A stretch of 64,000 bases of DNA, from positions 1,736,001 to 1,800,000 of the forward strand of contig NZ_CP118164.1 in NCBI RefSeq assembly GCF_028748185.1. Reading direction: 5' to 3'. Source of the DNA: Bremerella sp. P1 (GTDB taxonomy: Bacteria > Planctomycetota > Planctomycetia > Pirellulales > Pirellulaceae). A program made the position numbers and the translations under genes. Shown in pieces: positions 12,392-38,978 of this stretch (positions within the stretch are counted from its first letter, which is position 1; every line of letters starts with the position of its first letter). The notes under the pieces were generated by a model that did no database searches, was not told the origin of the DNA, and worked only from the letters and a program-made list of their open reading frames with translations.

Positions 12392-13060
12392 AAGATAAGA
12401 GAGAATTAAGTACTACAAGAGATGCCTCTCTCTGTTCCTGTAGCCAAATCCTTTTTTGCATTTCCTTATCAGGATCTGCATCCTCGAGTGCGGGCCTTCT
12501 TAAAGGCCCGCGACCTATTATTTTCTTGTACTTACCATTTACCTTTCTAGCTGTGTAAGACGACCTGAAAACATTCGATTCCTGAGGCACGACCTGTCCC
12601 ATCTTTCGGGGTTGAGGCTAGCCTCGCGTCATCGTCACTCTGGAGCAATAAGATGAGTAACGAATGCACTACTACTATTCTCCAAACACTCAAGAAAGTG
12701 TCGTAGAAAAGCGGGCGTAAACGAAAGACTGCCAGAGTTCGCTGCGCGACATCATTTCTGACATGCCTGGAAATTATTCCATTGGGCTAATACCTCGCGC
12801 AGTTAACCATTCCCATGATGCAAGAGACGGCTGCTGAATTAGCATGTCAGTCGGCATTCGCTGTTGACTCACGTGTCGCAACTAGCTCGGGAGTGCCTGT
12901 GCCTGACAGGAGCTCCTATTAGGTATTCGATCAAACACATCGAAAGCAAGGTTTAGAATCCTGTCTCTGGCATGCCCCCCAAAAACTGGTACATGTGTTA
13001 GGAGAGTCTAGAGGCCAATTTCGGCCAAGGAGACTCCCGTGACCAAGAAGCGTCACTGAT
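12392..13060. other. long leader region of the DUF1559 gene
   Basis: No convincing gene. Nearest the DUF1559 start is a putative leader containing GGCCTTTAAGAAGGCCCG-like repeats near 12490-12510. The promoter-like element at 12679-12702 is the only clear signal. The segment around 12628-12710 resembles the regions upstream of both lyase genes (CTGGAGCAAT, CTATTCTCC, AAAGTGTC). Confidence 0.4.
12679..12702 (-). promoter_or_regulatory. GACAC/GGAGA promoter-like element, DUF1559 unit
   Basis: On the minus strand CTACGACACTTTC is followed, 14 bases after GACAC, by GGAGAATAG. It matches six other copies in the window except for a spacer shorter by one base. It points to the DUF1559 gene. Confidence 0.55.
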
Positions 13061-13097
13061 AAAGAGCCCGGCAGCAAGTTGCCGGGCTCTTTTTTTG
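13061..13097. terminator. strong hairpin terminator
   Basis: AAAGAGCCCGGC (13061-13072) and GCCGGGCTCTTT (13081-13092) form a 12-base stem with an 8-base loop, followed by a T-run on the + strand. It lies 27 bases beyond the stop of lyase 1, which is on the minus strand, so it may act in both directions. Confidence 0.75.
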
Positions 13098-13123
13098 ATT
13101 TCAATCAAGCTTGATCGGCTGGG

Positions 13124-15130
13124 TTAGTTTACTGGAACTTCCTCCCCTAGCGGCAGACGCGGCGTACCAGGTACGACGTCCTGATAGCGGGCGTCCCCGT
13201 ACCCAAACCGAAGTTCGTCGTAGTAGAACTCGAGTTTGGACATTTGTGGATCCATGACTTCTCGGCCGAGATAGTTGCCGCTTCCGTCATAGGCGTCGTA
13301 CAGATCCAGGTAGCCAGAGCTCTTCCATTCCGGCTTGTAGATGCCGAATTGCATATTCGGTTCACGAACGCAGTTGTAGCCTAGCGGACCGTCGTACCGA
13401 TAAACGGACTCGTCATTGCACCAGATTTCGAGGAAACCATCGCCATCCTGGTTGTAGTTCCACTTCCAGTGCAAGACAAAGTCATGCCATTGGCCACGTT
13501 TCATGGGAACCATGGAAGCGTACGACCGATTGGCTCGCATTGTGGCGATCCCCTCTTCTAATGTTTCGGGGACCACGTCGTCCCAAGTGTGCTGAATCGC
13601 GAACTGTCCCTTGTCCGTGCGAATGCACATCGATGGACTTGAGTGCAGGTTGGTACCACCGTTTCCACCACCGTGCCATTGAAAGTTCAGGCTATTGATT
13701 CGTGGCGCTGGGTCGGGAAAGTCCTCTGGCACGTAGATGCTGATCCCCATCCAGCGTTCAATCCCCTCAGGGGTTTTAGGGGCATAGTAAATCTTGGGAA
13801 CGACTTCGCTGCGATAGTTCGAAGGGTAGGCTTCGTTGCGGGGTACATATGTCCGCATTGCGTAGTTACCTTTACGACGGATTTGACGATAGGGTGCCGT
13901 GATGAAGTCGGTGACGCCATCGTTATAGCCGTAAATGTAAGCACCGGATGGATCATCAGAGTCAACGAGGTTGTTGCCGAAACCATCATTCCCCCAAGCG
14001 CTCAAGACGAAGTGCGTGTAGTCCCCGTTGTATGCTGGATTCGTTGGATTGGTATAGGGGTATTGGTAATTGATGAAGGTGCCGTCTTCCCAGTCTTGAA
14101 CGAATTTAAGCGCCGCCTTGTTCCGCCTTGGTGCGGTGGTGAACGGCAGACGTGGAGTGCCTGGCACGACATCTTGATACAGGGCCGTCTCGTCTCCCAC
14201 GCTGTAGTCGTCGAAGAGCAACTCTAGTTCCGTGATTGGCGGATCCACAGGCGCTGTGCCGTTGGGTTCTCCGTTTTGGTCGTACAGTTGAACCTTGTCA
14301 ACAAAGTTTGCATTTCTCCAGTCATTTCGATTGCAGCCGAAGATGACCCAGGGAGCTGTGCTGTAGTTGTAACCGAGCGGACCTTCGTAATAGTAAACGG
14401 AGATATCGTTATGCCAGATCTCCAGGAACCCGTCGCCACCGGAGTTGTAGTTCCACTTCACATGGAAGACAAAGTCGTTCCATTGGCCAGGAATGACTGG
14501 TACCAGTTCGGCGTTGCTTCGGTTTTCCTGCTGAATCTGAAAACCTTCCGCACTGCTGGCCGGGATCGTATCGTCCCAGGAATGGCTGATATGAAAAGAG
14601 CCATTCATGATTGTCAGTTTCAGGGGCCCCCCATTGTGAATGTTATGCCCGTTACCCAGCCAACGCACGACCTTCGTTTGGCTAGTTGTCGCTTGCCAAT
14701 TGGCTGGAACGTAAACACTGAAGGCAAACCAGCGTTCCAAACCATCGATTGGCAAAACCTCCTCTTCCCGCGTCTCGGCCAGTTCACTTCGGAAGGAACG
14801 CCACTCTCGGGGAACATAAGTGCTAACGCTGTATTGCCCTGATCGAGAAATCGTATCAGTTACTAAGAGGCGGTCATAAATTCCATCGTTGTAACCTGCC
14901 ATCAGGTCTTCATTACCAGGGGCGCCGGCAGTCCCCAAGTTCGCCCCATCGACATAGAGAAAGAAGGTCGAATAGTCGAGGTTCCCATTGGGAATCGGCT
15001 CGAGCAGGGTACCATTCTCAAACCCGGTGGAATAGAGAATAGCCGCTTGATTGCGGGTAACGCCTTGGGCCCCCACTGCCGTAACCAGGCAATGCAAGCA
15101 TGAGAGTGCCAGAAAAACACGATACAACAT
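13124..15130 (-). CDS. secreted two-domain polysaccharide lyase (heparin-lyase-I-like), copy 1
   Basis: 668 residues from the ATG at 15130 (GGAG nine bases upstream; signal peptide MLYRVFLALSCLHCLVTAVG). It contains two consecutive PF14099-like concanavalin-type lyase domains, about 25-325 and about 335-660. Each has RSEL/RSEV, GLERW or GIERW followed by a YVP strand, GQWNDFVFHVKWNYN or GQWHDFVLHWKWNYN, DGFLEIW, YEGPLGYN or YDGPLGYN, and a closing YQDVVPGTPRLP. The fold groups heparin lyase I (PL13) and glucuronan lyase (PL20), which cleave uronic-acid polysaccharides by beta-elimination. Substrate and lyase activity are inferred. It is half of a tandem duplication with 15790-17784. Confidence 0.82.
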   Translation of the reverse strand: MLYRVFLALSCLHCLVTAVGAQGVTRNQAAILYSTGFENGTLLEPIPNGNLDYSTFFLYVDGANLGTAGAPGNEDLMAGYNDGIYDRLLVTDTISRSGQYSVSTYVPREWRSFRSELAETREEEVLPIDGLERWFAFSVYVPANWQATTSQTKVVRWLGNGHNIHNGGPLKLTIMNGSFHISHSWDDTIPASSAEGFQIQQENRSNAELVPVIPGQWNDFVFHVKWNYNSGGDGFLEIWHNDISVYYYEGPLGYNYSTAPWVIFGCNRNDWRNANFVDKVQLYDQNGEPNGTAPVDPPITELELLFDDYSVGDETALYQDVVPGTPRLPFTTAPRRNKAALKFVQDWEDGTFINYQYPYTNPTNPAYNGDYTHFVLSAWGNDGFGNNLVDSDDPSGAYIYGYNDGVTDFITAPYRQIRRKGNYAMRTYVPRNEAYPSNYRSEVVPKIYYAPKTPEGIERWMGISIYVPEDFPDPAPRINSLNFQWHGGGNGGTNLHSSPSMCIRTDKGQFAIQHTWDDVVPETLEEGIATMRANRSYASMVPMKRGQWHDFVLHWKWNYNQDGDGFLEIWCNDESVYRYDGPLGYNCVREPNMQFGIYKPEWKSSGYLDLYDAYDGSGNYLGREVMDPQMSKLEFYYDELRFGYGDARYQDVVPGTPRLPLGEEVPVN
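13203..14248. repeat. 1,046-base near-perfect repeat, copy A (partner 15869-16914)
   Basis: The interior of lyase gene 1 matches lyase gene 2 at a constant offset of 2,666 bases with no difference found by eye, while both flanks differ at many positions. This points to recent gene conversion rather than simple recent duplication. Confidence 0.85.
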
Positions 15131-15466
15131 CGAATTTTGCTCCAAGAAAGAGATGAGAGATTAGAGATTAGAGAAACGGGGTTCAAGAGTTCGTATTAGC
15201 TGGGGACCCCTGAATGAAAGAGACACAAACACCAGGAAATGCACGCAGAGACGTGCGCGAATCCCGAAAACCTGATATCTAATACAAGGCCATTAATCTA
15301 CTCCTTATTAGTTCCTCAATATTCCCCAACAATACTTCAACATGTCGTTGTGTATTTCACAGGACATTGACCGACGACACACACGACTTACGTTCCCGTT
15401 TTGAGTTGATCCAAGTCATGCGTCACCCTGGAACAATGCTCCAAACAACACATGCTTTAGTACTAT

Positions 15467-15491
15467 TCTCCGGATGTGAACAAAAAGTGTC
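15467..15491 (-). promoter_or_regulatory. GACAC/GGAGA promoter-like element, lyase 1
   Basis: On the minus strand CATGACACTTTTTG is followed, exactly 15 bases after GACAC, by GGAGAATAGTACTAAAG. It points to lyase 1, leaving an unusually long leader of about 330 bases. Confidence 0.65.
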
Positions 15492-15731
15492 ATGAAATAA
15501 GCGTCAGAAAATTAGTCCGTCTGCTGACGCGTATAGAAAGACGGCGGAAACGACTGGGGCAAGCCCTGGCTAGCAATGCCCTGCTCCAAAAGAACAACCG
15601 AAGCTGTAGCCAACCAAAGGCATTCCAAGGTTGCCCCGAGAAACAATTACTGCGCCATCGAAAGCGAGAGCTAAAGAATCCTATCTCGCCAACTTGCCTT
15701 ACCGAATTGCCGATCCAATCAAACAAATGAA

Positions 15732-15765
15732 ACTTGTCCCCGACCTCAATCTGGCCGGGGCAAGT
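15732..15765 (-). terminator. hairpin downstream of lyase 2
   Basis: On the minus strand ACTTGCCCCGGCC pairs imperfectly with GGTCGGGGACAAGT and is followed by a T-rich stretch (TTTCATTTGTTT). It lies about 25 bases after the stop of lyase 2. Confidence 0.55.
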
Positions 15766-15789
15766 TGAATGGACCAATAAATCGCTCTG

Positions 15790-17784
15790 CTAATTCACCG
15801 GAGTTTGCTCTTCCAAAGGAAGTCGCGGCGTACCGGGTACGACGTCCTGGTAGCGGGCATCCCCGTATCCAAACCGAAGTTCGTCGTAGTAGAACTCGAG
15901 TTTGGACATTTGTGGATCCATGACTTCTCGGCCGAGATAGTTGCCGCTTCCGTCATAGGCGTCGTACAGATCCAGGTAGCCAGAGCTCTTCCATTCCGGC
16001 TTGTAGATGCCGAATTGCATATTCGGTTCACGAACGCAGTTGTAGCCTAGCGGACCGTCGTACCGATAAACGGACTCGTCATTGCACCAGATTTCGAGGA
16101 AACCATCGCCATCCTGGTTGTAGTTCCACTTCCAGTGCAAGACAAAGTCATGCCATTGGCCACGTTTCATGGGAACCATGGAAGCGTACGACCGATTGGC
16201 TCGCATTGTGGCGATCCCCTCTTCTAATGTTTCGGGGACCACGTCGTCCCAAGTGTGCTGAATCGCGAACTGTCCCTTGTCCGTGCGAATGCACATCGAT
16301 GGACTTGAGTGCAGGTTGGTACCACCGTTTCCACCACCGTGCCATTGAAAGTTCAGGCTATTGATTCGTGGCGCTGGGTCGGGAAAGTCCTCTGGCACGT
16401 AGATGCTGATCCCCATCCAGCGTTCAATCCCCTCAGGGGTTTTAGGGGCATAGTAAATCTTGGGAACGACTTCGCTGCGATAGTTCGAAGGGTAGGCTTC
16501 GTTGCGGGGTACATATGTCCGCATTGCGTAGTTACCTTTACGACGGATTTGACGATAGGGTGCCGTGATGAAGTCGGTGACGCCATCGTTATAGCCGTAA
16601 ATGTAAGCACCGGATGGATCATCAGAGTCAACGAGGTTGTTGCCGAAACCATCATTCCCCCAAGCGCTCAAGACGAAGTGCGTGTAGTCCCCGTTGTATG
16701 CTGGATTCGTTGGATTGGTATAGGGGTATTGGTAATTGATGAAGGTGCCGTCTTCCCAGTCTTGAACGAATTTAAGCGCCGCCTTGTTCCGCCTTGGTGC
16801 GGTGGTGAACGGCAGACGTGGAGTGCCTGGCACGACATCTTGATACAGGGCCGTCTCGTCTCCCACGCTGTAGTCGTCGAAGAGCAACTCTAGTTCCGTG
16901 ATTGGCGGATCCACGATCGCTGTGCCGTTGGGTTCTCCGTTTTGGTCGTACAGTTGAACCTCATCCTCGAATTGGGGATGACTCCAGGGCTCTCGATTGC
17001 AGCCGAAGACGAACCAGGGAGCTGTACTGAAGTTATAACCGAGCGGACCTTCGTAGAAGTAGACGGAGATGTCGTTATGCCAAATCTCCAGGAATCCGTC
17101 GCCACCGGAGTTGTAGTTCCATTTCACATGGAGGACAAAGTCGTTCCATTGGCCAGGAATGACCGGTACCAGTTCGGCGTTGCTTCGGTTTTCTGCCTGA
17201 AGCTGATAACCTTCCGCACTGCTGGCCGGGATCGTATCGTCCCAGGAATGGCTGATATGAAAGGAGCCATTTTGGGTTATCAGCTCCATGGGGCCCTTTT
17301 GGTGATCAATATCTCCATTTCCCAACCAACTGGCGACAAGGGTCTCGGTGGTGGTCGCTTGCCAGTTAGCCGGCACGTATACGCTGAAGGCGATCCAGCG
17401 TTCCAAACCGTCGATTGGCAAGACCTCCACATCCCGCGTCTCGGCCAGTTCACTTCGGTAGGAACTTCCCTGACGGGGAACATAACTACTGACGCTGTAT
17501 TGTCCTGATCGCGAGATCGTATCGGTCACCAAAATGCGGTACTTGTAACCCGTCATCAGGTTTTCATTACCTGGGGCGCCAGCGTCTCCGATTGAGCGAT
17601 TATCGACATAGAGATTGAAGGACGTATAGTCGAGGTCCCCATTGGGGATCGGCTCGACCAGGGTGCCATTCTCAAACCCGGTGGAATAGAGAATAGCCGC
17701 CTGATTGCGGGTAACGGTTTGGGCACCCACTGCCGTAACCAGGCAATGCAAGCATGAGAGTGCCAGAAAAACACGATACAACAT
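15790..17784 (-). CDS. secreted two-domain polysaccharide lyase (heparin-lyase-I-like), copy 2
   Basis: 664 residues from the ATG at 17784, which gives the same signal peptide as copy 1 (MLYRVFLALSCLHCL); longer starts would only add leader sequence. It has the same two PF14099-like domains. Domain 2 and the linker match copy 1 almost exactly because of the 1,046-base identical block. Domain 1 has diverged, for example SWLGNGDIDHQKGPMEL against RWLGNGHNIHNGGPLKL, and a shorter loop (GYKYRILV against GYNDGIYDRLLV). Divergence limited to domain 1 suggests it tunes substrate binding while domain 2 is kept identical (inference). The gene lies on the same strand upstream of copy 1, each with its own promoter-like element. 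Confidence 0.82.
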   Translation of the reverse strand: MLYRVFLALSCLHCLVTAVGAQTVTRNQAAILYSTGFENGTLVEPIPNGDLDYTSFNLYVDNRSIGDAGAPGNENLMTGYKYRILVTDTISRSGQYSVSSYVPRQGSSYRSELAETRDVEVLPIDGLERWIAFSVYVPANWQATTTETLVASWLGNGDIDHQKGPMELITQNGSFHISHSWDDTIPASSAEGYQLQAENRSNAELVPVIPGQWNDFVLHVKWNYNSGGDGFLEIWHNDISVYFYEGPLGYNFSTAPWFVFGCNREPWSHPQFEDEVQLYDQNGEPNGTAIVDPPITELELLFDDYSVGDETALYQDVVPGTPRLPFTTAPRRNKAALKFVQDWEDGTFINYQYPYTNPTNPAYNGDYTHFVLSAWGNDGFGNNLVDSDDPSGAYIYGYNDGVTDFITAPYRQIRRKGNYAMRTYVPRNEAYPSNYRSEVVPKIYYAPKTPEGIERWMGISIYVPEDFPDPAPRINSLNFQWHGGGNGGTNLHSSPSMCIRTDKGQFAIQHTWDDVVPETLEEGIATMRANRSYASMVPMKRGQWHDFVLHWKWNYNQDGDGFLEIWCNDESVYRYDGPLGYNCVREPNMQFGIYKPEWKSSGYLDLYDAYDGSGNYLGREVMDPQMSKLEFYYDELRFGYGDARYQDVVPGTPRLPLEEQTPVN
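15869..16914. repeat. 1,046-base near-perfect repeat, copy B (partner 13203-14248)
   Basis: Second copy of the identical block inside lyase gene 2. The boundaries are abrupt: flanking codons differ at 15868 and again from 16915 onward. Confidence 0.85.
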
Positions 17785-18513
17785 CGAATTTTGCTCCAAG
17801 AAAGAGATCAGAGAATAGAGATGAGAGAAACGCGGTTCAAGAGTCCATTTTCGCTGGGGACTCTTGAATGAAAGAGATACAAAGAAGAGGACATGCAGGA
17901 CTGACGTTCCCGTTTTGAGTTGATCCAAGTCATGCGTCACCCTGGAGCAATGCTCCACGTAAGACATCCTTTAGTTCTATTCTCCGACTGCGAACAAAAA
18001 GTGTCACAAAATAAGCGTCAGAAAATTAGTTCATCTCCTGACGTTTATAGAAGGACGGCGGAAACGACTGGGGCAAGCCCTGGCTAGTAATGTTCTGCTC
18101 CAAAAGAACAACCGAAGTTTTAGCCAACCAAAGGCATGCTGCCGTTGCCCTATCAGATATTCACTACTTCCCTCGGAGATCATCATGCCTTCGGGCGATA
18201 CCTTGGACAGTAAATCTGCCTCGCAACTTGAGTCAAAGAATGCCGAATCAGATGCCAGGGGCATTCCTTGTTGAGGCACGTGTCATAGATAGCCAAGCCA
18301 AGAGAATTCTGTACAAGACAACACCGTACACCGTTGCCCTCCACGCGTTGCTAACGCCCATGTACAGCCTCTAGTCGCGACGACTGTACCTTTTTCGAGA
18401 TGGCAATTTGGCTCGGGCAATTGTTCCCACAGAACAATTCACCGATAAGCGTCAGGTAATCTTTTCGATCAGAGGTTGTGGAACAAGAGTTTCGAACGAT
18501 AGATTTCCAGTGT
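17785..18513. other. leader of lyase 2 and downstream region of the symporter operon
   Basis: No convincing gene. It holds the duplicated regulatory DNA described for 15131-15789. Closer to the symporter stop is a perfect inverted repeat AATTGTTC/GAACAATT (18419-18439) with a five-base loop. A GTACAG/CTGTAC pair also lies at about 18361-18389. These are possible transcription-stop structures, but neither has a T-run. Confidence 0.4.
17981..18005 (-). promoter_or_regulatory. GACAC/GGAGA promoter-like element, lyase 2
   Basis: On the minus strand TTGTGACACTTTTTG is followed, exactly 15 bases after GACAC, by GGAGAATAGAACTAAAG. It points to lyase 2, with a leader of about 195 bases. Confidence 0.65.
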
Positions 18514-19965
18514 TCATGTTTCGTCATGCATTTCCATCTCGCGCCTTTCCGTAGCGAGGATTTCCAATGCTTCAGCATCGGTAACCGTTCGAGCGGGAGT
18601 GCTGAGACTTACCGCGACACCGGCGACGGTAGCGCAAATCAGCGATGGGATAATAGGGCCCCCCCAAAACGCTCCTAGCGAATCGCTATATTTAAACAGC
18701 ACCGTGCACCCCCCCCCTCCCAGAATTGCCGCAATTCCTCCCTGCCATGTGGCTCGAGGCCAGTATTTGCCCATTAAAGTGCAAACCACCAAGCCGCTCA
18801 TGACGAATGAAATCATGTCTTTGATGTATCGAATGATATCTTCCGCGGGCAAAGTAACTGCGAACGCTACAATCATGATCCCCAATAGCCCCCAGCGAGA
18901 ATTACGAACCATTTGACGACTATCGGGTCTCTTTCCGGTAAACATTTCGTAGACATCACGAAAGAGGATCGCAACCGCTGCAATGGCATCGGAACTAGCT
19001 GAAGACATCGTTGCGCTGAGCCCAGCAATGAGAACTACCATGCCGATAGTGGCTGGCATAAGGTCGTTCGCCATGTGCAAAAACGCGTGGTCATTGTTCT
19101 CAAGATTCGGATTTATCTGAAAGACGCATATTCCGATCAGCGCGGGAAGAAAGCAGAACATTAGATACAGGACACCGCTCAGATAGAAGCTTTTTCTTAC
19201 CGTTTCCGGGCCATCCGCCGAGTAAATTCTTTGTCGATAGGAAGGCGTTCCCAGAATTCCAACCAGAATTGCAACAGCCAGTGATATCGATGGCAACAGC
19301 TGTTCGCCACGCAGGAAGTCAAGGCTACCATTGGTCAAGTTACTGACATTAGCTGGCCCACCAACTTGGTAAACCGCGAACACAACCATGGCAATAAATC
19401 CGATGAACAGAATGATCGCCTGAATCGTGTCTGTCCAGACAACGGCCACGTAGCCCCCGATGATAACGTAGGTCCCGAACCCAAGGGCAAGAATGGCCTT
19501 GGCTACCACGGGGTCAATTTTTCCCACGTATTCCAGATAATAACTACCTCCCAGGATATGAGCCCCCAGCCAACCAATCGATGCCAGCAGCATAGAAATG
19601 GCGACTAGCCCTTTTATCCAACGATTCGCTCCGTAATAGAACGAGAGCTCTTCCGACATAGTCATGAAGTTGTACTTGCGAACATCAGCAAACAACTTTC
19701 CCAGCAATAACATTCCCAGCCCACCGCCAACTCCGAACATAGCACCACGCCAGCCGTTGGCATATCCTTGCCCAACTGCTCCTATGCTTGATCCTGTTCC
19801 GACCATGGTCGCAACCGTCGAACCCAAAACAAGAATTAGGGGAATCGAACGATTTCCCAGCAGAAAGTCTTCGCCTGAATTCTGCCGGCGTGAAATCCAG
19901 ACGCTCAGCCCAATCATCCCCAAGATGTAGAGCAGGAAAACAGAAAGGAATAGTGTCGGACTCAT
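18514..19965 (-). CDS. sodium:solute symporter (SSS family)
   Basis: A 483-residue integral membrane protein with about 13 helices, starting LFLSVFLLYILGMIGLSVWI. SSS features are RRQNSGEDFLLGNRSIP, the GSTVATMVGTGSSIGAVGQGYANGW segment in helix 2, and GLSATMSSASSDAIAAVAIL near residue 320, where the family carries its Na+-site Ser/Thr residues. Its start overlaps the RidA stop (ATGA), placing it last in the rpiR-deacylase-ridA-symporter operon. The likely substrate is an N-acylated or free D-amino acid, inferred from the neighbours. Confidence 0.88.
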   Translation of the reverse strand: MSPTLFLSVFLLYILGMIGLSVWISRRQNSGEDFLLGNRSIPLILVLGSTVATMVGTGSSIGAVGQGYANGWRGAMFGVGGGLGMLLLGKLFADVRKYNFMTMSEELSFYYGANRWIKGLVAISMLLASIGWLGAHILGGSYYLEYVGKIDPVVAKAILALGFGTYVIIGGYVAVVWTDTIQAIILFIGFIAMVVFAVYQVGGPANVSNLTNGSLDFLRGEQLLPSISLAVAILVGILGTPSYRQRIYSADGPETVRKSFYLSGVLYLMFCFLPALIGICVFQINPNLENNDHAFLHMANDLMPATIGMVVLIAGLSATMSSASSDAIAAVAILFRDVYEMFTGKRPDSRQMVRNSRWGLLGIMIVAFAVTLPAEDIIRYIKDMISFVMSGLVVCTLMGKYWPRATWQGGIAAILGGGGCTVLFKYSDSLGAFWGGPIIPSLICATVAGVAVSLSTPARTVTDAEALEILATERREMEMHDET

Positions 19966-20354: not shown

Positions 20355-20384
20355 AATCTGTTTCTTTCATAGCTAGAGAGAGAG

Positions 20385-21839: not shown

Positions 21840-21842
21840 TGG

Positions 21843-26151: not shown

Positions 26152-26311
26152 CTGCACTCTCTACATCTAGCGAGTTTAGACACTGCGAAGAATGCTTCAC
26201 TCTACCACTAGGCAAGAAGACGACAGATCTCCCCGGGCCAACTTGTCACTCGTATATAGTCTGATGCTCCAGGACAATCCTAGCCTGTCGTCCATCACCC
26301 TGTTTCAAGAA

Positions 26312-27367: not shown

Positions 27368-28912
27368 TTACCGACTGACGTCTTTCAGACACGGCAGAAA
27401 GTCAATGAAGTGACCATTGTCAAATCCCGATTGTGTACCACTCAATTCCTTTGCCGCTTTCATCCGCAGCTCATTCAGCAACGGTTCATACTCCGGTAGC
27501 AACGCCAAATTGCGCAACTCCTCTGGATCTTCTGCCAGGTTGTAGATCTCTTCGAATGCCTCATCGCCAGTGTAGGTTGCATACTTATAGTGGCCACTGC
27601 GAATCATCACCCACATGGGCATTTGATCGTTCGTGCTCGCTTCACGGTTTCTTCTCACGACTCCCCTGGGAATATCTTCTGCGAAGTGAGTACGCGTGTT
27701 GGTTAACAGCAGAACGTCTCGTTTCAACTCGGCATCTGGGTCTTCCAACACTGGTAAAAGACTTTCACCATCCATGCTTGGAAGTGCTTGGATACCACCC
27801 AACGCATGGAGCGTCTGGACGATATCCGTTCCACCAACAGGTATCCCACAAACCTCCCCGGCCGGGAACCGACGAGGAAAGCGAAAGATCAATGGAGACG
27901 CTAAAGTGTCGTCATAGGGTGCGTTCTTTTTCTTGACGTGACCGTGATGCCCCATGCCTAGCCCCTGATCCGATGCGAAGATGAAAACCGTGTCTTCCAG
28001 CTGCCCCGTTTCCTGGAGAGCCTTTTCCAGACGCCCTACGCTTTCATCAATAGATAAGATGCACTCGTTATAACGCAGGATCAATTCTTGAACCGTACTT
28101 GTTTTCGGTGATGGCAGCTTGCGCACGTAGTTTGGCTTACCTTCGCGCGGAACCGCAAAGCTGCGGGGCAATTCGATACCAGAAACGCCGCTAAAAAACC
28201 CCTGATGCCTCTTAGCCGGTGTTTGCGGCGAGTGCGGACTCGAATAGCAAAGCCAGAGGTACCACGGTTGATCGCTCTCAGCTCGCTCTTCGATATAGTT
28301 GATGGCAAAATCCGTATACCGATCAACGCTGTAGCCGTTCAGCTCTATCGGATCATTGCCGTTGATGCTTACCTTTTGGTCGTAGTAGTAAGCGTTCACC
28401 ATTCTCTTGTGCCAGTAGACCGCATAGTCCCAGTCAATGCCAACGGCCGGCATACGCGAGTAGATGTGCCATTTTCCGATCATCGCTGTGTGATAACCGG
28501 ACTCCCGAAGACGTTGAACCCAAAAAGGATGGTGACGTATCTCTCGATTCAGATCATCTCCTTGCAGGGCGATGCCTCCAAAGTTCCCCCGAGCGGAGTG
28601 GGGAAGATTTCCCGTTAGCTGGCTGATTCTTGAAGGCACGCAGAACGTTGCCATGTAAACCGATTCAAACCTCACCCCTTCCCTGGCCAATGCGTCGATG
28701 TTTGGTGTCCGTACCCAAGGACGAGATTCAGGGTAACAGCTGACGGTTCGTGTACTCTGATCGTCCGTGAATACATAAAGAATATTTGGACGTTCCTTCG
28801 CCCATGAGCGAGATCCAGACAAAAACACAACAATCAGCATCAATGCCGGCAAAGTCAATTGCGAATGCAAACATCTCTTGCGCGAGGACAAGTCAAAAGC
28901 AATTCTCGGCAT
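27368..28912 (-). CDS. secreted sulfatase (family S1)
   Basis: 514 residues. The signal sequence has a long N-region and hydrophobic core at about 20-34 (LPALMLIVVFLSG), with cleavage near SWA-KE. Metal-binding motif is NILYVFTDDQ; formylglycine motif is C91-V-P-S-R95; then GKWHIYS, SPHSPQTPAKRHQG, VFIFASDQGLGMGHHGHVKKK and a C-terminal YNLAEDPEELRNLA, typical of carbohydrate sulfatases. It is divergently transcribed from the sigma/FecR/sulfatase-lyase operon. A GACAC/GGAGA element points at it from 29067-29091, on the other strand of the palindrome that feeds the sigma operon, so both directions are probably co-controlled. Confidence 0.92.
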   Translation of the reverse strand: MPRIAFDLSSRKRCLHSQLTLPALMLIVVFLSGSRSWAKERPNILYVFTDDQSTRTVSCYPESRPWVRTPNIDALAREGVRFESVYMATFCVPSRISQLTGNLPHSARGNFGGIALQGDDLNREIRHHPFWVQRLRESGYHTAMIGKWHIYSRMPAVGIDWDYAVYWHKRMVNAYYYDQKVSINGNDPIELNGYSVDRYTDFAINYIEERAESDQPWYLWLCYSSPHSPQTPAKRHQGFFSGVSGIELPRSFAVPREGKPNYVRKLPSPKTSTVQELILRYNECILSIDESVGRLEKALQETGQLEDTVFIFASDQGLGMGHHGHVKKKNAPYDDTLASPLIFRFPRRFPAGEVCGIPVGGTDIVQTLHALGGIQALPSMDGESLLPVLEDPDAELKRDVLLLTNTRTHFAEDIPRGVVRRNREASTNDQMPMWVMIRSGHYKYATYTGDEAFEEIYNLAEDPEELRNLALLPEYEPLLNELRMKAAKELSGTQSGFDNGHFIDFLPCLKDVSR

Positions 28913-29066: not shown

Positions 29067-29091
29067 TCTCCAAGACTCATCGAAAAGTGTC
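29067..29091 (-). promoter_or_regulatory. GACAC/GGAGA promoter-like element, sulfatase at 27368
   Basis: On the minus strand TGCGACACTTTTCG is followed, 15 bases after GACAC, by GGAGAAATTC. It points to the sulfatase with a leader of about 155 bases. Confidence 0.65.
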
Positions 29092-29109
29092 GCATTTAGC
29101 GACACTTTT
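29083..29109. promoter_or_regulatory. 27-base palindrome joining two divergent promoters
   Basis: AAAAGTGTCGC (29083-29093) and GCGACACTTTT (29099-29109) are perfect 11-base arms around ATTTA. Each arm is the upstream box of one of two divergent GACAC/GGAGA elements. The position between two divergent gene starts argues against a terminator. Confidence 0.7.
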
Positions 29110-29125
29110 TAGCCTCTCGAGGAGA
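29101..29125 (+). promoter_or_regulatory. GACAC/GGAGA promoter-like element, sigma operon
   Basis: AGCGACACTTTTTAG is followed, 15 bases after GACAC, by GGAGATGTTAAG. It lies 55 bases before the ATG of the ECF sigma gene, a normal promoter distance. Confidence 0.7.
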
Positions 29126-29180: not shown

Positions 29181-29714
29181 ATGACAGCTACGCCGTCTCC
29201 CCCCTCTGATGTATTCATCCAGCAACTCACCGGGAGCCAGTCTTCACTGCGGGCAATCATCATGGCTTCGCTAGGAAATCATGCAGATTGCGAAGATGTT
29301 CTCCAAGCGACGAATCTGGTGATTTGGAAGAAGGCTTCCGAGTTCGACCCGACGCGCCCCTTTCTTGCCTGGGCCTCTGGAATCGCGCGAATCGAGGTGC
29401 TGACATTCATTCGCGATCGAAAACGTGACCGACTTGCTTTTCGTGAGGATGTCGCTGAGTTGCTTATTGATGTCGCCGAGGTGGCTGCGGAATCGATTCC
29501 ACAACGACAAATCGCACTCCGCCATTGCTTACAACAGTTACCCATGGAAAGTCGTGAACTGCTAAATCTCAAGTACGTTCGTAGCCAATCCACAAAACAG
29601 CTTTCCGCCGCAACAGGCCGTTCACTGGACGGAGTAAAGAGCGTTTTAGTGCGCATTCGGAGATTGCTGAGCGAGTGTGTTGAAAACAAAACCAAAGCGA
29701 TGCCCGAAGCGTGA
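29181..29714 (+). CDS. ECF-type sigma factor, planctomycete/verrucomicrobial type
   Basis: 177 residues. Region 2 covers about 12-75 (FIQQLTGSQSSLRAIIMASLG, then CEDVLQATNLVIWKKASEFDP and PFLAWASGIARIEVLTFIRDRKRD). Region 4 covers about 110-165 (ALRHCLQQLPMESRELLNLKY, then STKQLSAATGRSLDGVKSVLVRIRRLL). It is followed after 12 bases by a FecR-type transmembrane gene, so sigma and signal transducer are coupled. The promoter-like element ahead of it is shared with six other units in the window; autoregulation is usual for ECF factors, so this is the best candidate to read that element (inference). It is about 37 residues shorter than the sigma factor at 25507. Confidence 0.88.
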   Translation: MTATPSPPSDVFIQQLTGSQSSLRAIIMASLGNHADCEDVLQATNLVIWKKASEFDPTRPFLAWASGIARIEVLTFIRDRKRDRLAFREDVAELLIDVAEVAAESIPQRQIALRHCLQQLPMESRELLNLKYVRSQSTKQLSAATGRSLDGVKSVLVRIRRLLSECVENKTKAMPEA

Positions 29715-29726
29715 GAGCGTACTGGT

Positions 29727-31385
29727 ATGAATGAACAACATCAACTTATCGAACAACTGGATCACTGGCTCTTAAAAGTCAGTGAAGGCACTGCAACCCC
29801 CGAAGAAACACATCACTTCAATGAACTGCTCGCAAGTAACGCGAGTCTGCGAGAATACGCTGCCAAGCGTCTCATTGATGACTCGTTGTTAGTAGAACAT
29901 CTTCGAGAGTCGGCGGCTGAGTCGATCCTTCGTGGTCAATCGGTGCTGCCTGGTGAAGGCACAGAAACACAGCAAACGAGATCGCGTTTCTACCTGCCGA
30001 TGTGGTCCGTGGTTTCGTTGGCTATCGCAGTTAGCATTCTCCTGATCTTGACATTGCCACAGATGTTTGACGGCACAGGCGCCAAGAATTCCTCGAGCCC
30101 TGTTGATGTAGCTGAAAACAGTGATTCCGAAGATGGGGCGTCTTTATTTCCAACGCTCGACGCTGATGCCGTTGCCACTCTTACCCGAGCAGTCGATGTG
30201 CAATGGGCCGAGGGACAGTCACCTTTGCATATTGATGCGAGCCTTCGCCCGAAGAGAATTCGACTGAACGAAGGCCTGATTCAGTTGGAATTTTTCAGTG
30301 GTGCCACCGTTGTTGTCGAAGGTCCGGCCGAGTTTGTCATTGAGTCTGCCTTACGATGTCGACTGCTGTTCGGAAAAGTACGGGCGGATGTTCCCATGCA
30401 GGCCCGCGGCTTCACCATCGCCCACAACTCACTTGATGCCGTTGATCTAGGCACCGAGTTTGCAATGCGCGTGGAAAAATCAGGAAATGGTGAGATCCAT
30501 GTCCTTGAAGGTGACGTTTCGCTACGAACGCGTGATGGTAAGGAGAAACGCAAACTGAAAGTTGGTGAGGCCGTAAGCTATGATGCGGACGGAGTACTGA
30601 CTACCCGAGGAGCGGAAAGCGATTCGTTCGTCGGAATTGAAAAGCTCAGGGAATTAGACAGGGAGCGACGAGATCATCGATTTCAGCGATGGCTTAAGCA
30701 ACGAGATCAATGGGCAAACGATCCCGATGTCGTCCTGTATTATGACTTCCAGCAAGCAAATCAGGACAATCGCAGGCTACTCAGTGCTATCAATGGAGCT
30801 TCCGAGTCGGAGGATGGCGCCATCATCGGATGCCAATGGAGACAGGGTCGTTTTGCGGGAAAGTACGGCCTGGAATTCAAGCGAATCAGTGATCGGGTGC
30901 GAGTCAATGTTCCGGGAGAATTTGACTCATTGAGCATGGTTGTCTGGCTTCGTATCGAAGGAGCCGATCGTTGGTATAACTCCCTCCTGCTGACCGACGG
31001 ATGGGACAAAGGTGAACCGCACTGGCAGATCACTCACGAGGGAAAGCTTCAATTGGGCGTCCAGGGAGGCGGAAATTATAACGGCCCGGTGGTTGTTAAA
31101 CCGAGTCATCTCGGTCACTGGGTACAGCTTGCCACGGTCTATGACCACAAGAGAGGAGTAATCGACTTTTATCGTAATGGCGTGCTCACCAGAACTTCCC
31201 AGATAAGGGACACCACAGTCTTGCGGATCGGCGATGCGGAAATAGGAAATTGGAGGACACCCAAGTCAGGTGACCTAAATATCCGTAGCCTGAACGGCCT
31301 GATCGATGAAATTGCGGTCTTCTCACGACCGCTCACTTCAGAAGAGATCTTATCCGCATTCAATGCAGGCAATCCCGATCAATAG
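29727..31385 (+). CDS. FecR-domain transmembrane protein with C-terminal LamG domain
   Basis: 552 residues. The N-terminal cytoplasmic part (about 1-88) has the anti-sigma-like pattern LDHWLLKVSEGTATPEETHHFNELL. One membrane helix lies at about 93-113 (WSVVSLAIAVSILLILTLPQ). A FecR domain covers about 190-290 (LEFFSGATVVVEGPAEFVIES, GFTIAHNSLDAVDLGTEFAM, IHVLEGDVSLRT). A LamG/concanavalin-type jellyroll covers about 340-550 (SMVVWLRIEGADRWYNSLLLTD, then GHWVQLATVYDHKRG and GLIDEIAVFSRPLTSEEI). The outer LamG domain could bind a carbohydrate and signal to the sigma factor encoded just upstream; this is inference from domain order. Confidence 0.88.
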   Translation: MNEQHQLIEQLDHWLLKVSEGTATPEETHHFNELLASNASLREYAAKRLIDDSLLVEHLRESAAESILRGQSVLPGEGTETQQTRSRFYLPMWSVVSLAIAVSILLILTLPQMFDGTGAKNSSSPVDVAENSDSEDGASLFPTLDADAVATLTRAVDVQWAEGQSPLHIDASLRPKRIRLNEGLIQLEFFSGATVVVEGPAEFVIESALRCRLLFGKVRADVPMQARGFTIAHNSLDAVDLGTEFAMRVEKSGNGEIHVLEGDVSLRTRDGKEKRKLKVGEAVSYDADGVLTTRGAESDSFVGIEKLRELDRERRDHRFQRWLKQRDQWANDPDVVLYYDFQQANQDNRRLLSAINGASESEDGAIIGCQWRQGRFAGKYGLEFKRISDRVRVNVPGEFDSLSMVVWLRIEGADRWYNSLLLTDGWDKGEPHWQITHEGKLQLGVQGGGNYNGPVVVKPSHLGHWVQLATVYDHKRGVIDFYRNGVLTRTSQIRDTTVLRIGDAEIGNWRTPKSGDLNIRSLNGLIDEIAVFSRPLTSEEILSAFNAGNPDQ

Positions 31386-31518: not shown

Positions 31519-33876
31519 ATGAAGTTTCCCTGCCTGATACTTTTGGCCTACTTAATCCTTCTGCCGACTACCGCCACGCTTGCAGCCGCGGGAGAACAGC
31601 GCCCCAACGTATTGTTCATCGCAATTGACGACTTGAACGATTGGGTTGGCTTCCTAGGAGGACATCCCCAGGCACTGACGCCGAACATGGACCGACTTGC
31701 GGCTCGCGGCATCGTTTTCACAAATGCCCACTGCGTTTCGCCGGCATGTAATCCCTCACGAGCGGCTGTCTTCACAGGCCAAATGCCATGGCGAACCCAG
31801 GTATGGTCGAACAAGAGTCCTAAATTATTTGACTTACATAAAAACATCCCGGTTCTACCAGATTCATTTCGCGAGGCGGGTTATGCGACTTTTGGGACTG
31901 GGAAACTGATGCACTCGGGAGATTCCGCCAACAAGCGACTATTCGAGCACTCATTTGCCACAGAACAGCGTTGGAGCCCGCTTACAAGAGAGCAAGCACG
32001 CTATACAAAACATGAGCTTCCGTCCAAAGGAACGAAGCAGCCAAGACATCTTGTCCAGTTTGGTGAACAACAAATTGTACTACCACTCAATGGTATGCCC
32101 TCGGATCGTAATCCTGATTCAACCGAGGGTGAATCATTTGACTGGGGTCCGTTTGACGTTCCAGATTCTGCGATGGGCGATGCGCAGATAACAAGCTGGG
32201 CTATTGAGCAACTCAGCTCAAGTGTTCAGAAACAAGGTCCCCCCTTCTTCATGGGCGTTGGTTACTATCGACCACACATACCACTTTTTGCTCCGGCCAA
32301 ATACTTCGAGCGCTTTAATGATGCCCCAGTCAAGTTGCCAGTTGTCAGGCGCAATGACTTAGACGATCTTAGTAGTACGGCGAAACGCTGGGCACTCGAA
32401 CCTGTCACTGCAGGCAAGCATGATACAGTAATCAAACACGACCAATGGCATGCCGCGGTGAAAGCCTACCTGGCAAGCACGACGTTTGTGGATGCCCAGA
32501 TCGGACGTCTTGTCGATGCGCTCGATGCCGGGGAATTTGGCGACAATACGTTGATTGTCGTTTGGAGCGACCATGGCTGGCACCTGGGCGAGAAGCAACA
32601 CTGGGGTAAGTGGACCGGCTGGGAGCGATCAACTCGAGTCCCCTTAATCATTATTCCCCCGAAACGACTTTCCGAGAGGTTCGCCAAGCCTGGTTCACGC
32701 TGTGCAGTTCCAGTTAGCCTGCTCGACATCTACCCAACACTGTTAGAACTGTGTGATTTGAAGCCCTCACAAGAACTCGATGGTGAAAGCCTTGTTCCCC
32801 TTTTGCATCGGCCCGATCGCAACTCTGATCGAGTTGCTTATACCTCTTTCAATTTAGGAAACATTTCGATTCGGGATAGGCGATGGCGACTTATTCGCTA
32901 TGCAGATGGTCATCATGAATTGTACGACCTGGAGAAAGACCCCCACGAGTTAACCAATCTGGCAGGCGACATCAAATATGAAAAGGTGATCAAACAGCTT
33001 GAACGTGAGATTCCAGTCGAAGCCTTACCCAAAGCTGAACAACACGAATTCCAGCGACTCAAGAGCCGAGTACGTCGATTCTACGCGGATCTGGTCTATG
33101 ATCACTGTTCGCCGCTCCTGTTTCACACGGACTTCTCATCTCTAGACTTCAAAGATCTATCCATCTCGGAAGACGACCACTATTCCATCGCCGAGGCCTT
33201 GCCTGAACGCTTGGAGATTGTTGATGCCCCTTTAATAGACCGCTACATTAAGGCAGCCAAGTTCACGGTCCCCTTTGCAAACGGAGCGTTTCGTAGCGAG
33301 TTGTCCCTTCCTCACGAGAAAGGGTTTCAGGAGCGGTGGTACGCCGCAAGTATTTTTATTCCCTCAGACTGGGAACAAGACCTCGGGGGCGGAGATGACA
33401 TTGTAATGCAGTGGCATGCAATCCCCGGAAACTGGAAAGCCACCTACCCCAATGTGGCGTTAAGCGTTAAAGGAGATCAGTGGTATCTCCGACGTAGTTT
33501 CGGGTCGCCCCAGACAAAGCCAACTCGCGAGTCCGAATGTCTTGGCGATGTCAATAAAGGAAAGTGGACGCGGTGGATATTCCATATTGATTGGTCGCCC
33601 GAGAAGGACGGAGTAATCGAGGCATGGAAAGATGAACTGAAAATATTGGAACTGACGGGGCCTAATGTCTACGGCACGATCGGCGTCGACTATACACCCT
33701 ACATGAAATTCGGAATCTATCACCCATCCTGGAAACACGCTCAGCCAGTCACCGACTCCACTCAAGCAGTTGGTCACACAGTCTACTTCACTGATATTTC
33801 TGTTGGAAGCAAACGCGCAAACTTACTCAGCCTTCAACCAATTCCATCCACCGCCACTGAATCCACAGAACGATAG
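31519..33876 (+). CDS. sulfatase fused to a heparin-lyase-like domain
   Basis: 785 residues with a signal peptide at about 1-24. Residues about 28-520 form an iduronate-2-sulfatase-type sulfatase: NVLFIAIDDLNDWVGFLGGH, formylglycine motif C77-N-P-S-R81, GKLMHSG, YYRPHIPLFAP, VVWSDHGWHLGEK and YDLEKDPHELTNLAG. Residues about 535-770 form a PF14099-like lyase jellyroll: FRSELSLPHEKGFQERWYAA, IFIPSDWEQD, VMQWHAIPGNW, GKWTRWIFHIDWSPEKDGVIE and YMKFGIYHPSW. The lyase domain has the same architecture as those of the tandem lyases at 13124 and 15790. A single exported protein that desulfates and cleaves one polysaccharide is the natural reading. It lies 133 bases after the FecR/LamG gene. Confidence 0.88.
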   Translation: MKFPCLILLAYLILLPTTATLAAAGEQRPNVLFIAIDDLNDWVGFLGGHPQALTPNMDRLAARGIVFTNAHCVSPACNPSRAAVFTGQMPWRTQVWSNKSPKLFDLHKNIPVLPDSFREAGYATFGTGKLMHSGDSANKRLFEHSFATEQRWSPLTREQARYTKHELPSKGTKQPRHLVQFGEQQIVLPLNGMPSDRNPDSTEGESFDWGPFDVPDSAMGDAQITSWAIEQLSSSVQKQGPPFFMGVGYYRPHIPLFAPAKYFERFNDAPVKLPVVRRNDLDDLSSTAKRWALEPVTAGKHDTVIKHDQWHAAVKAYLASTTFVDAQIGRLVDALDAGEFGDNTLIVVWSDHGWHLGEKQHWGKWTGWERSTRVPLIIIPPKRLSERFAKPGSRCAVPVSLLDIYPTLLELCDLKPSQELDGESLVPLLHRPDRNSDRVAYTSFNLGNISIRDRRWRLIRYADGHHELYDLEKDPHELTNLAGDIKYEKVIKQLEREIPVEALPKAEQHEFQRLKSRVRRFYADLVYDHCSPLLFHTDFSSLDFKDLSISEDDHYSIAEALPERLEIVDAPLIDRYIKAAKFTVPFANGAFRSELSLPHEKGFQERWYAASIFIPSDWEQDLGGGDDIVMQWHAIPGNWKATYPNVALSVKGDQWYLRRSFGSPQTKPTRESECLGDVNKGKWTRWIFHIDWSPEKDGVIEAWKDELKILELTGPNVYGTIGVDYTPYMKFGIYHPSWKHAQPVTDSTQAVGHTVYFTDISVGSKRANLLSLQPIPSTATESTER

Positions 33877-37784: not shown

Positions 37785-37805
37785 ACCGGCTGTTTAAGCC
37801 GGTTT
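37783..37805 (+). terminator. hairpin at the end of DUF1592/DUF1552 pair 1
   Basis: AAACCGGC (37783-37790) and GCCGGTTT (37798-37805) form a perfect 8-base stem with a 7-base loop, overlapping the stop codon. The following T-run is short, so termination may be partial. Confidence 0.55.
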
Positions 37806-38110: not shown

Positions 38111-38785
38111 TCATGGCAAACGCTTGATGACGATATTCCGGAATGCGACAGGATCCCTATGACCGGCAAGCCCCAAATGCCCTTCTCGGCGGTCCTTACC
38201 TGGGTGCTCCTTGTCGTTCATAAACTCCTTTACCTGTGAGAGATCGCCATCAAGGATCACCGTGCCGTTGAGCTCTACTTTAATGCGTGATCCCGTGACA
38301 GTAATTTCCTGAAAGTTCCACTGCCCCACCGGACGTAGGAAGCCTGTCTTGGCAGCGATCATGCCATAGGCCGAGCCATGAACTTGCCGTGCGTCAATCT
38401 CGGCGTACTTGGGATGTTGATTGTCAAGAATCTGGATCTCACACATTCCCGCGGACGAAGGAAGGCCCGAACCGGGATAGCGAATTGCAACTCCGTTGTT
38501 ACCGCCTGGAGGAAGCTTGAATTCCATCCGAACGACGAAGTTCCCAAACACTTCACGGCTGTAAAGTGTTCCCGACTTACCTGGCTTGCAGCGCAACGTA
38601 CCATCAAGAACTACGTACTCGTCGACGGCGCCCGACCAGCCAGCTAAATCCTTGCCATTGAAGAGCGGTGTGAATTGATCGCTATCGCTCGCCAAGTCAC
38701 CCGCATTTACGACTATTGGGAATTGCCAAGGCGCGCCTAACACAGCCATCCATACTACGAATCTGAAGAATTGCGGGGCTTTCAA
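38111..38785 (-). CDS. DUF1080 (3-keto-disaccharide hydrolase-like) exported protein
   Basis: 224 residues with signal sequence FFRFVVWMAVLGAPW and cleavage near VNA-GD. DUF1080 features: FTPLFNGKDLAGWSG at 40-55, then DGTLRCKPGKSGTLYSREVFGNF, LPPGGNNGVAIRYPG, CEIQILDN and QWNFQEITVTGSRIKVELNG, ending in LGLAGHRDPVAFRNIVIK. This concanavalin-like family acts on or binds carbohydrate; some members hydrolyse 3-keto-glycosides. The start is a TTG with AGGA seven bases upstream; an ATG at 38749 would cut into the signal sequence. It is divergent from the second DUF1592/DUF1552 unit and has its own GACAC/GGAGA element. Confidence 0.85.
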   Translation of the reverse strand: MKAPQFFRFVVWMAVLGAPWQFPIVVNAGDLASDSDQFTPLFNGKDLAGWSGAVDEYVVLDGTLRCKPGKSGTLYSREVFGNFVVRMEFKLPPGGNNGVAIRYPGSGLPSSAGMCEIQILDNQHPKYAEIDARQVHGSAYGMIAAKTGFLRPVGQWNFQEITVTGSRIKVELNGTVILDGDLSQVKEFMNDKEHPGKDRREGHLGLAGHRDPVAFRNIVIKRLP

Positions 38786-38890
38786 TGTATTGTCCTATAT
38801 GCACGACTCGTTACGAAAAATCATCGTGGTAGAGTTAGCTGCCAGTTCATATCAATAGTGACATGGGTTGAGCAAAGCTCATTTAACGAA

Positions 38891-38915
38891 TCTCCACACC
38901 TGAAGGAAATGTGTC
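38891..38915 (-). promoter_or_regulatory. GACAC/GGAGA promoter-like element, DUF1080 gene
   Basis: On the minus strand TTGTGACACATTTCC is followed, 15 bases after GACAC, by GGAGATTCG. It lies about 105 bases before the DUF1080 start. Confidence 0.6.
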
Positions 38916-38953
38916 ACAATTTCACCGATTTAGAACTTATTGAATCGAACTGC

Positions 38954-38978
38954 GACACTTCTGCTCGCGTTTGGGAGA
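38954..38978 (+). promoter_or_regulatory. GACAC/GGAGA promoter-like element, DUF1592 pair 2
   Basis: TGCGACACTTCTGC is followed, 15 bases after GACAC, by GGAGATTACTC. It points to the gene at 39179, with a leader of about 200 bases. Confidence 0.6.

What the first reader, a model, noticed from the sequence alone, without database searches (positions are those of the whole stretch)
12679..38978. A seven-copy composite promoter that may define an ECF sigma regulon for polysaccharide use
Seen directly: seven intergenic sites have GACAC followed by GGAGA, with exactly 15 bases between in six and 14 in the seventh. Positions are 12679-12702 (-), 15467-15491 (-), 17981-18005 (-), 29067-29091 (-), 29101-29125 (+), 38891-38915 (-), 38954-38978 (+). 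Every copy points to the adjacent gene start. Extended consensus is TGYGACACTTT then GGAGAWW. Spacing and layout fit -35/-10 boxes of an alternative sigma factor. One copy sits 55 bases before the ECF sigma gene at 29181, as expected for autoregulation. The others precede both lyases, a sulfatase, a DUF1559 unit, a DUF1080 gene and a DUF1592/DUF1552 unit.
Basis: partly seen in the sequence, partly recalled or inferred. Interest (0 to 1): 0.82.

Follow-up and report, generated by a model that had tools for sequence, protein, structure and literature searches.

The report
Private sigma-factor promoter in one cluster
Seven copies of one two-part promoter, all in a single sugar-degrading gene cluster of a planctomycete bacterium, look like the private switch of the cluster's own sigma factor, and many relatives of that sigma factor carry a similar switch whose letters differ in step with the protein.

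Summary
All seven GACAC-N15-GGAGA sites (one is N14) are at the stated coordinates; an eighth exact copy (48648) lies inside a coding ORF. Of nine exact N15 copies in the 6.96-Mb genome, seven are in this window (six reported ones and 48648) and the other two lie inside long open frames. So this is no genome-wide polysaccharide regulon; it looks like a private regulon of one roughly 30-kb cluster.

The sigma-promoter reading is strongly supported by comparison. The sigma gene (29181; TIGR02989) has relatives in five other genomes (45-57% identity) with GACAC-N15-GGAGA before their own sigma gene. Further relatives keep the spacing with other letters (GCCAC/GGCAG, GACAC/GGACA, GTAAC/GGTAA). The letters go with two protein positions, 154 and 72, but kinship alone could explain that. 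In four relatives their own sigma's letters also precede a neighbouring DUF1559 gene.

Best explanation: an autoregulated ECF sigma with a membrane FecR-LamG partner, probably a carbohydrate-sensing anti-sigma, switching on lyases, sulfatases, DUF1559 and DUF1592/DUF1552 genes. No expression data were available. New variant of a known kind.

The parts
12679..12702 (-). promoter element GACAC-N14-GGAGA before DUF1559 gene 11480-12370 (start inferred)
   Evidence: 26.4 bits, 24.6 when left out of the matrix
15467..15491 (-). promoter element (N15) before lyase gene 13124-15130 (start inferred)
17981..18005 (-). promoter element (N15) before lyase gene 15790-17784 (start inferred)
29067..29091 (-). 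promoter element (N15) before sulfatase gene 27368-28912; back to back with 29101
29101..29125 (+). proposed autoregulatory promoter element (N15), 55 bases before the sigma gene
   Evidence: copies before orthologous sigma genes
38891..38915 (-). promoter element (N15) before DUF1080 (3keto-disac_hyd) gene 38111-38785
38954..38978 (+). promoter element (N15) before DUF1592/DUF1552/DUF1559 genes 39179-44086
29181..29714 (+). ECF sigma factor, TIGR02989 (Sig-70_gvs1), 177 aa
   Evidence: Pfam Sigma70_r2 and r4_2; TIGR02989 141.2 bits, cut-off 124.55
29727..31385 (+). membrane protein: helical part 1-69, TM about 87-114, FecR-like, LamG; proposed anti-sigma and sensor
31519..33876 (+). sulfatase fused to polysaccharide lyase (PF00884 + PF14099)
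   Evidence: the same pair of domains in one protein of L060
34202..37784 (+). DUF1592-type cytochrome protein and DUF1552 protein, possibly read from the sigma operon
   Evidence: co-transcription inferred from order only
11480..12370 (-). DUF1559 pseudopilin-like protein
13124..15130 (-). polysaccharide lyase (PF14099)
15790..17784 (-). polysaccharide lyase (PF14099), similar to the former
27368..28912 (-). sulfatase
38111..38785 (-). DUF1080 / 3-keto-disaccharide hydrolase domain protein
39179..44086 (+). DUF1592, DUF1552 and DUF1559 genes in one direction
48648..48672 (+). weak eighth match inside a coding ORF; probably chance

Best explanation
The seven elements are promoters read by the ECF sigma factor encoded at 29181 (-35 GACAC, 15 bases, -10 GGAGAWW). 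The sigma gene is one of its own targets, so released sigma amplifies itself and turns on the six other units of the cluster. Next to it, 29727 encodes a single-pass membrane protein with an N-terminal helical part, a FecR-like domain and a concanavalin-A-like LamG domain. I infer that its N-terminal part lies in the cytoplasm and holds the sigma until the LamG domain meets a polysaccharide or fragment outside. SHOWN by sequence: the elements, their confinement to the cluster at full strength, their presence before orthologous sigma genes, the fixed spacing, and the association of letters with two protein positions. INFERRED: binding, transcription start, anti-sigma action, topology, the inducing sugar.
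For: Confinement: GACACTTT-N11..13-GGAGA has 7 genome hits, 6 in the window, one of them 48648. GACACTTTN12GGAGAW over 396 genomes of the order gives 18 hits in 15 genomes, and only this genome has more than one (4). A weight matrix scores the seven sites 22.8-28.3 bits (17.9-26.7 when each is left out); the best in 400 kb from elsewhere in this genome scores 14.3.

Footprints: GACAC-N15-GGAGA precedes the sigma gene in G474 (57%), L060/G534 (55%), G047 (54%), G101 (50%) and G619 (45%).

Spacing: [CA]AC-Nk-GG..A upstream of 31 relatives at >=40% identity: k=15 in 17, 3.7 expected, z 7.6; no other k from 8 to 24 above z 1.8; 39 relatives under 40% show no peak at 15.

Letters and protein: K153-[S/C]154 has G[AC]CAC-N15-GG in 19 of 21, others in 1 of 63; K-V154 has GTAAC-N15/16-GGTA in 16 of 19, others in 0 of 65.

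Second gene: G042, G130, G082 and G619 carry their own sigma's letters also before a divergent DUF1559 gene.

Cluster orthology: L060 has sigma, FecR-LamG, DUF1592, the sulfatase-lyase fusion and a sulfatase.
Against: No expression, 5'-end or binding data. The patterns and residue classes were chosen after looking at part of the same sequences. On the sigma tree the -35 third base changes 3 times and the -10 base once, with three rows assigned by hand; one supported independent pair each, so the link to residues 154 and 72 is not significant once kinship is counted. Residue 154 itself changes 10 times by letter. E72 or Q72 alone does not predict an element: 19 of 38 with E72 and 18 of 34 with Q72 have none of the two patterns. 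Among relatives at >=40%, L038, L040, L043, L086, L087, L095 and L102 have no convincing element; L101 has GACCC. The sites of L093 and L099, among the 19, lie 246 and 212 bases upstream and may be chance. Of the 16 other clusters read, 10 show only the sigma's own site. Among 11 sigma paralogs of this genome only one has a clear element, and no cluster shows recurrence like the window's. Three of the seven sites are copies by duplication.
Confidence: 0.87

Rival explanations
1. The element is the operator of an ordinary DNA-binding regulator in the cluster (RpiR-type 21843, or AraC-type 45498), not a promoter.
For: Both regulators lie in the same stretch; two short boxes at fixed spacing can be an operator.
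Against: The element is not palindromic, points at the gene in all seven cases, and recurs before sigma genes of other families with spacing kept and letters that go with the sigma protein. The RpiR operon 18514-22730 has no copy.
Confidence: 0.04
2. The element is read by the second ECF sigma gene of the cluster (25510-26157).
For: It is an ECF sigma with a neighbouring one-TM protein, about 3 kb from 29181.
Against: It has no copy of the element upstream and is below the TIGR02989 cut-off (55.5 against 124.55 bits). In relatives the element sits directly before close relatives of 29181.
Confidence: 0.03
3. The copies are left over from duplication of one upstream region and mark ancestry, not regulation.
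For: The leaders of 12679, 15467 and 17981 are homologous.
Against: The other four sites share little beyond the boxes and their edges, and the boxes recur in other families.
Confidence: 0.02
4. A genome-wide polysaccharide regulon of the sigma.
For: Target genes are lyases, sulfatases and DUF1592 genes. One-mismatch hits exceed the control, 302 against 219.
Against: Only 2 exact N15 copies outside the window, both inside open frames of 650 and 789 codons. The one-mismatch excess was not followed up; the matrix was run on 400 kb of the rest of the genome only.
Confidence: 0.04

Closest known systems
TIGR02989 (Sig-70_gvs1) ECF sigma factors of the Rhodopirellula/Verrucomicrobium family
   Same: Sequence membership met above the curated cut-off; a FecR-type membrane protein next door, as in the relatives read.
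   Different: No promoter for this family turned up in the library searched. The window's locus has seven target promoters; the 16 other clusters read show one to three N15 hits.
Autoregulated ECF sigma with class I (membrane) anti-sigma, as reviewed in PMC8103513 (passages read)
   Same: Sigma and membrane partner in tandem, promoter before its own gene, -35 ending in AC.
   Different: The passages give AAC / CGT as the early hallmark boxes; here CAC / GGAGA.
SigI factors of Clostridium thermocellum (PMC4711584, abstract and section list read)
   Same: Works alike: several alternative sigmas activated by extracellular polysaccharides, each with its own promoter letters, targeting itself and polysaccharide-degrading genes.
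   Different: SigI is another sigma type (recalled); its targets have scattered gene numbers, here they lie in one cluster. A sugar-binding anti-sigma (RsgI) is recalled, not read.
FecI/FecR systems
   Same: FecR-like domain in the partner (22.1 bits, just under the Pfam cut-off of 24; above it in L060).
   Different: FecI-type sigmas are described as an exception to autoregulation (PMC8103513); here the footprint argues for it. A TonB receptor was not searched for.
Rhodopirellula baltica RB10049-RB10051 (PMC2754498, section 12 and passages read)
   Same: An ECF sigma proposed as regulator of a nearby DUF1553/DUF1549 protein.
   Different: A proposal cited from earlier work; the section names no promoter element for it.

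Membership tests
TIGR02989 Sig-70_gvs1 | score above curated cut-off 124.55 bits | tested here: met
   141.2 bits; 5 of 6 relatives tested also met it, L063 just missed (122.9)
ECF sigma factor (group IV) | sigma regions 2 and 4 as the only sigma domains | tested here: met
   PF04542 and PF08281, 177 aa
ECF sigma factor (group IV) | early hallmark boxes AAC (-35) and CGT (-10); dropped from the definition later (PMC8103513) | tested here: not met
   CAC and GGAGA in all seven sites; not a defining feature in the later classification
ECF with class I anti-sigma | membrane partner encoded directly downstream | tested here: met
   29727 starts 12 bases after the sigma gene; one TM segment 87-105 by hydropathy, helix 93-114 in the model
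ECF with class I anti-sigma | partner's cytoplasmic domain binds and inhibits the sigma | not testable with these tools
   needs a binding assay; membrane orientation is inferred
Autoregulated ECF | own promoter element before the sigma gene, kept in orthologs | tested here: met
   sequence evidence only
FecI-like | no autoregulation; TonB receptor as signal input | tested here: inconclusive
   footprint argues for autoregulation; TonB receptor not searched for
ECF group number of the 2021 re-classification | match to a group model | not testable with these tools
   paper not held, models not at hand

The most novel reading that the evidence does not exclude
A large branch of the TIGR02989 sigma family is a natural set of mutually private sigma-promoter pairs. 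The geometry is frozen (xxxAC-N15-GG), the -35 third base is set by residue 154 (S/C/T to C, V to A, M to G) and the -10 third base by residue 72 (E to A/C, Q to T), each on its own. Each locus carries its sigma, membrane partner and promoters as a portable unit that can enter a new genome without cross-talk. The window's cluster is such a unit, enlarged to seven promoters partly by copying a promoter-plus-leader cassette.
Probability: 0.45. Interest if true: 0.72.

Novelty: new variant of a known kind. Interest (0 to 1): 0.6.

Why it matters
Planctomycetes carry many ECF sigma factors (37 in Rhodopirellula baltica, PMC2754498; 24 matches to this sigma in this genome) and many sulfatases (recalled), with little known about their control. 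This gives a concrete promoter for one sigma subfamily, a candidate rule for reading relatives' promoters from the protein, and a testable regulon for polysaccharide breakdown. DUF1559 and DUF1592/DUF1552 proteins are placed under the same switch. The family could also supply orthogonal sigma-promoter pairs.

Tried and rejected
Genome-wide regulon: not supported. The one-mismatch excess (302 against 219 control) was left unexplained.

GGAGA as a Shine-Dalgarno sequence: rejected; it ends 55 to about 340 bases before the likely start codons.

48648 as an eighth promoter: probably chance. It lies in the 3' end of an ORF and lacks WW after GGAGA. A hairpin with a T run follows at about 48918-48957, so a 3' small RNA is conceivable; not pursued.

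Other sigma paralogs of this genome as parallel cases: ten 40-kb stretches holding 11 of the 23 other matches were scanned; one of the 11 has an internal stop. One (4539557) has GTAAC-N15-GGTAAAT. One stretch (5177684) has five exact recurrences of TCGAG-N15-CTCGA, a palindrome-like pair with 11 hits within one mismatch as counted there, which I took as composition. None looks like the window's. The other 12 were not looked at.

Avoidance of the element elsewhere (2 exact N15 outside the window, 80 hits outside over 13 spacings): weak, not claimed.

Plasmids: relatives of the sigma only below 60% identity, best rows 29-34%. Rfam on the window: no match. Solved structures by sequence for lyase and FecR-LamG: none at E <= 0.01. 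By fold, model residues 332-551 are a concanavalin-A-like jelly roll; matches to that fold in toxins and other proteins say nothing on function. The helices at the N-terminus were not tested by fold. Region 4 alone against PDB gave no useful template. Equating residues 153-154 with R171/S172 of E. coli sigma-E is recalled, not tested.

One search printed minus-strand loci in the wrong direction; one search repeats it correctly, and one search is not used.
Full report
WHAT IS THERE. The window is bases 1736001-1800000 of a 6.96-Mb single-contig genome; that it is a planctomycete is inferred from its gene families and nearest named relatives. Six have 15 bases between GACAC and GGAGA, one has 14. 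Counting 48648, N15 occurs seven times, N14 once, and no other spacing between 8 and 22 occurs. Composition predicts 0.125 N15 copies. A weight matrix from the seven sites and three orthologous sites scores the seven at 22.8-28.3 bits (17.9-26.7 when each is left out). The next site, 48648, scores 16.4; the best in 400 kb from elsewhere in the genome, all around sigma paralogs, scores 14.3. Three of the seven (before DUF1559 and both lyases) share about 100 bases of leader and look like copies, so at most five are independent.

WHERE ELSE IN THE GENOME. Exact N14-16 hits number 29 genome-wide, 27 for the reversed control; 8 of the 29 are in the window. Of the 21 outside, 18 lie inside open frames of 200 codons or more, the other three in frames of 109-167 codons. 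Over spacings 9-21 there are 88 hits, 80 for the reversed control, 8 in the window; N15 has seven in the window and two elsewhere. Over 396 genomes of the order, GACACTTTN12GGAGAW has 18 hits in 15 genomes and only this genome has more than one, four. With one mismatch allowed this genome has 302 hits against 219 control (the list of places is capped), an excess I did not resolve. At full strength the element is confined to one cluster.

THE CLUSTER. Units with a site: DUF1559 (11480), two PF14099 lyases (13124, 15790), a sulfatase (27368), the sigma gene with the genes that follow it in one direction (29727 FecR-LamG, 31519 sulfatase-lyase fusion, 34202 DUF1592, 36189 DUF1552), DUF1080 (38111), and DUF1592-DUF1552-DUF1559 (39179-44086). 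Units without: transporter-amidohydrolase-RpiR operon 18514-22730, D-serine dehydratase-like 23163, second ECF sigma 25510, AraC-type 45498, ORF 46512. The sigma is TIGR02989 (141.2 bits, cut-off 124.55).

RELATIVES. Sigma relatives came from searches of 60, 396 and 397 genomes (partly the same genomes) and one scan of named genomes. The best outside matches are 57, 55, 54, 50 and 50% identical. Four of these five carry GACAC-N15-GGAGA 60-153 bases before the aligned start of the sigma (G474, G534/L060, G047, G101); the fifth, G042, has GCCAC-N15-GGCAG. G619 (45%) also has GACAC-N15-GGAGA. L089 and L088 (48, 44%) have GCCAC with GGAGA; relatives at 41-45% have GACAC with GGCGA, GGCAA, GGACA, GGACT or GGCCT; another subgroup has GTAAC-N15-GGTAA. 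Spacing test on 70 relatives: for the 31 at >=40% identity, [CA]AC-Nk-GG..A peaks only at k=15 (17 of 31, 3.7 expected, z 7.6), and the two looser patterns agree (z 4.1 and 4.8); for the 39 below 40% there is no peak at 15. The patterns were chosen after reading some of these sequences, and the relatives are not independent.

LETTERS GO WITH THE PROTEIN. On 84 relatives, after dropping three duplicate contigs (L061, L062, L162; near-identical L166/L167 and L069/L070 kept), two patterns picked from earlier calls were applied to all without regard to the protein. K153-[S/C]154 goes with G[AC]CAC-N15-GG in 19 of 21, against 1 of 63 others. K-V154 goes with GTAAC-N15/16-GGTA in 16 of 19, against 0 of 65 others. 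All 16 GTAAC/GGTA cases have Q72, and 19 of the 20 CAC cases have E72; but 19 of 38 with E72 and 18 of 34 with Q72 have neither pattern. Two of the 19, L093 and L099, have their site 246 and 212 bases upstream and may be chance. Single cases outside the two patterns: L063, a Verrucomicrobiota MAG with V154 and E72, reads GTAAC-N15-GGAGTCA (by eye); L047 (V154, E72) reads TTAAC-N15-GGCATTT; L169 (T154, Q72) reads GTCAC-N15-GGTAAAG; L034, L172 and L175 (M154, T72) read GTGAC-N16-GGAATAA (by eye). These mixed cases suggest that the two boxes are set separately. Against it: on the tree the -35 third base changes three times and the -10 base once, residue 154 changes ten times by letter, L169, L063 and L047 were assigned by hand, and each independent-pair test has one supported pair, so kinship alone could explain the association with these residues. 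Among relatives at >=40%, L038, L040, L043, L086, L087, L095 and L102 show no convincing element and L101 has GACCC.

THE SAME LETTERS AT A SECOND GENE. G042, G130 and G082 carry a second copy in their own sigma's letters, pointing away from the sigma gene to a DUF1559 gene. G619 does too. In G042 and G619 the copy lies inside the ORF as called but before its N-methylation motif, so before the likely true start. G042 and G130 are one genus. G474 has a second copy at the beginning of a DUF1592 ORF. In G101 a DUF1559 gene follows sigma and FecR-LamG in the same direction. Of the 16 clusters read besides the window (8 to 80 kb each), 10 show only the sigma's own N15 site; further hits in G042 (90558), G273 (12799) and G474 (240244, inside an ORF) were not assessed or look like chance. 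Off-spacing hits occur too, up to five per cluster. So sigma, FecR-LamG and DUF1559 may be the old core; the seven-site regulon of the window is an enlargement.

ORTHOLOGOUS CLUSTER. L060 has sigma, FecR-LamG, DUF1592, a sulfatase-lyase fusion and a sulfatase. In 98 relatives (10 candidates scored per genome, E <= 1e-100) the listed matches to the fusion protein cover the sulfatase part only. None of the eight other species of the genus has a match at that threshold, and no listed sigma match there exceeds 40% identity. The cluster's GC (8-50 kb) is 0.499, against a mean of 0.545 and a minimum of 0.505 in 20 blocks elsewhere (these blocks surround sigma paralogs). The left flank is equally low in GC (0.49-0.52), so no island border is defined there. 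This fits acquisition but does not prove it.

WHAT IS KNOWN. PMC8103513 (passages) states that ECF factors were first described with AAC/CGT boxes, tandem anti-sigma and autoregulation, and that a residue-to-base code and promoter predictions exist. The papers it cites for this (its references 50 and 56) were not held, so I cannot say whether they already list this promoter. Searches of the open library, of which I saw listings and the passages cited, showed no promoter for TIGR02989. The SigI system (PMC4711584, abstract) works alike.

Noticed in passing
48648-48672 and about 48918-48957: An eighth GACAC-N15-GGAGA inside the 3' end of ORF 46512-48863, followed by a hairpin with a T run; could start a 3' small RNA, more likely chance.
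   Followed up: partly
25014-26157: A second ECF sigma gene (below the gvs1 cut-off) overlapping a gene for a one-TM protein, with no copy of the element.
   Followed up: partly
12372-18080: The promoters of DUF1559 and of the two lyases share about 100 bases of leader: perhaps a promoter-plus-leader cassette copied to new genes.
   Followed up: partly
8000-50000, 54100-56130: Possible island: lower GC than 20 blocks elsewhere, no close sigma or fusion enzyme in eight congeners, a serine recombinase ORF nearby.
   Followed up: partly
31519-33876: Sulfatase fused to a PF14099 lyase; among the sequences read here the same pair was seen only in L060.
   Followed up: partly
L034, L172, L175: A third specificity by eye: GTGAC-N16-GGAATAA before sigma genes with K153-M154 and T72.
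   Followed up: no
G000, whole genome: GACAC-N15-GGAGA with one mismatch: 302 hits against 219 for the reversed control.
   Followed up: no
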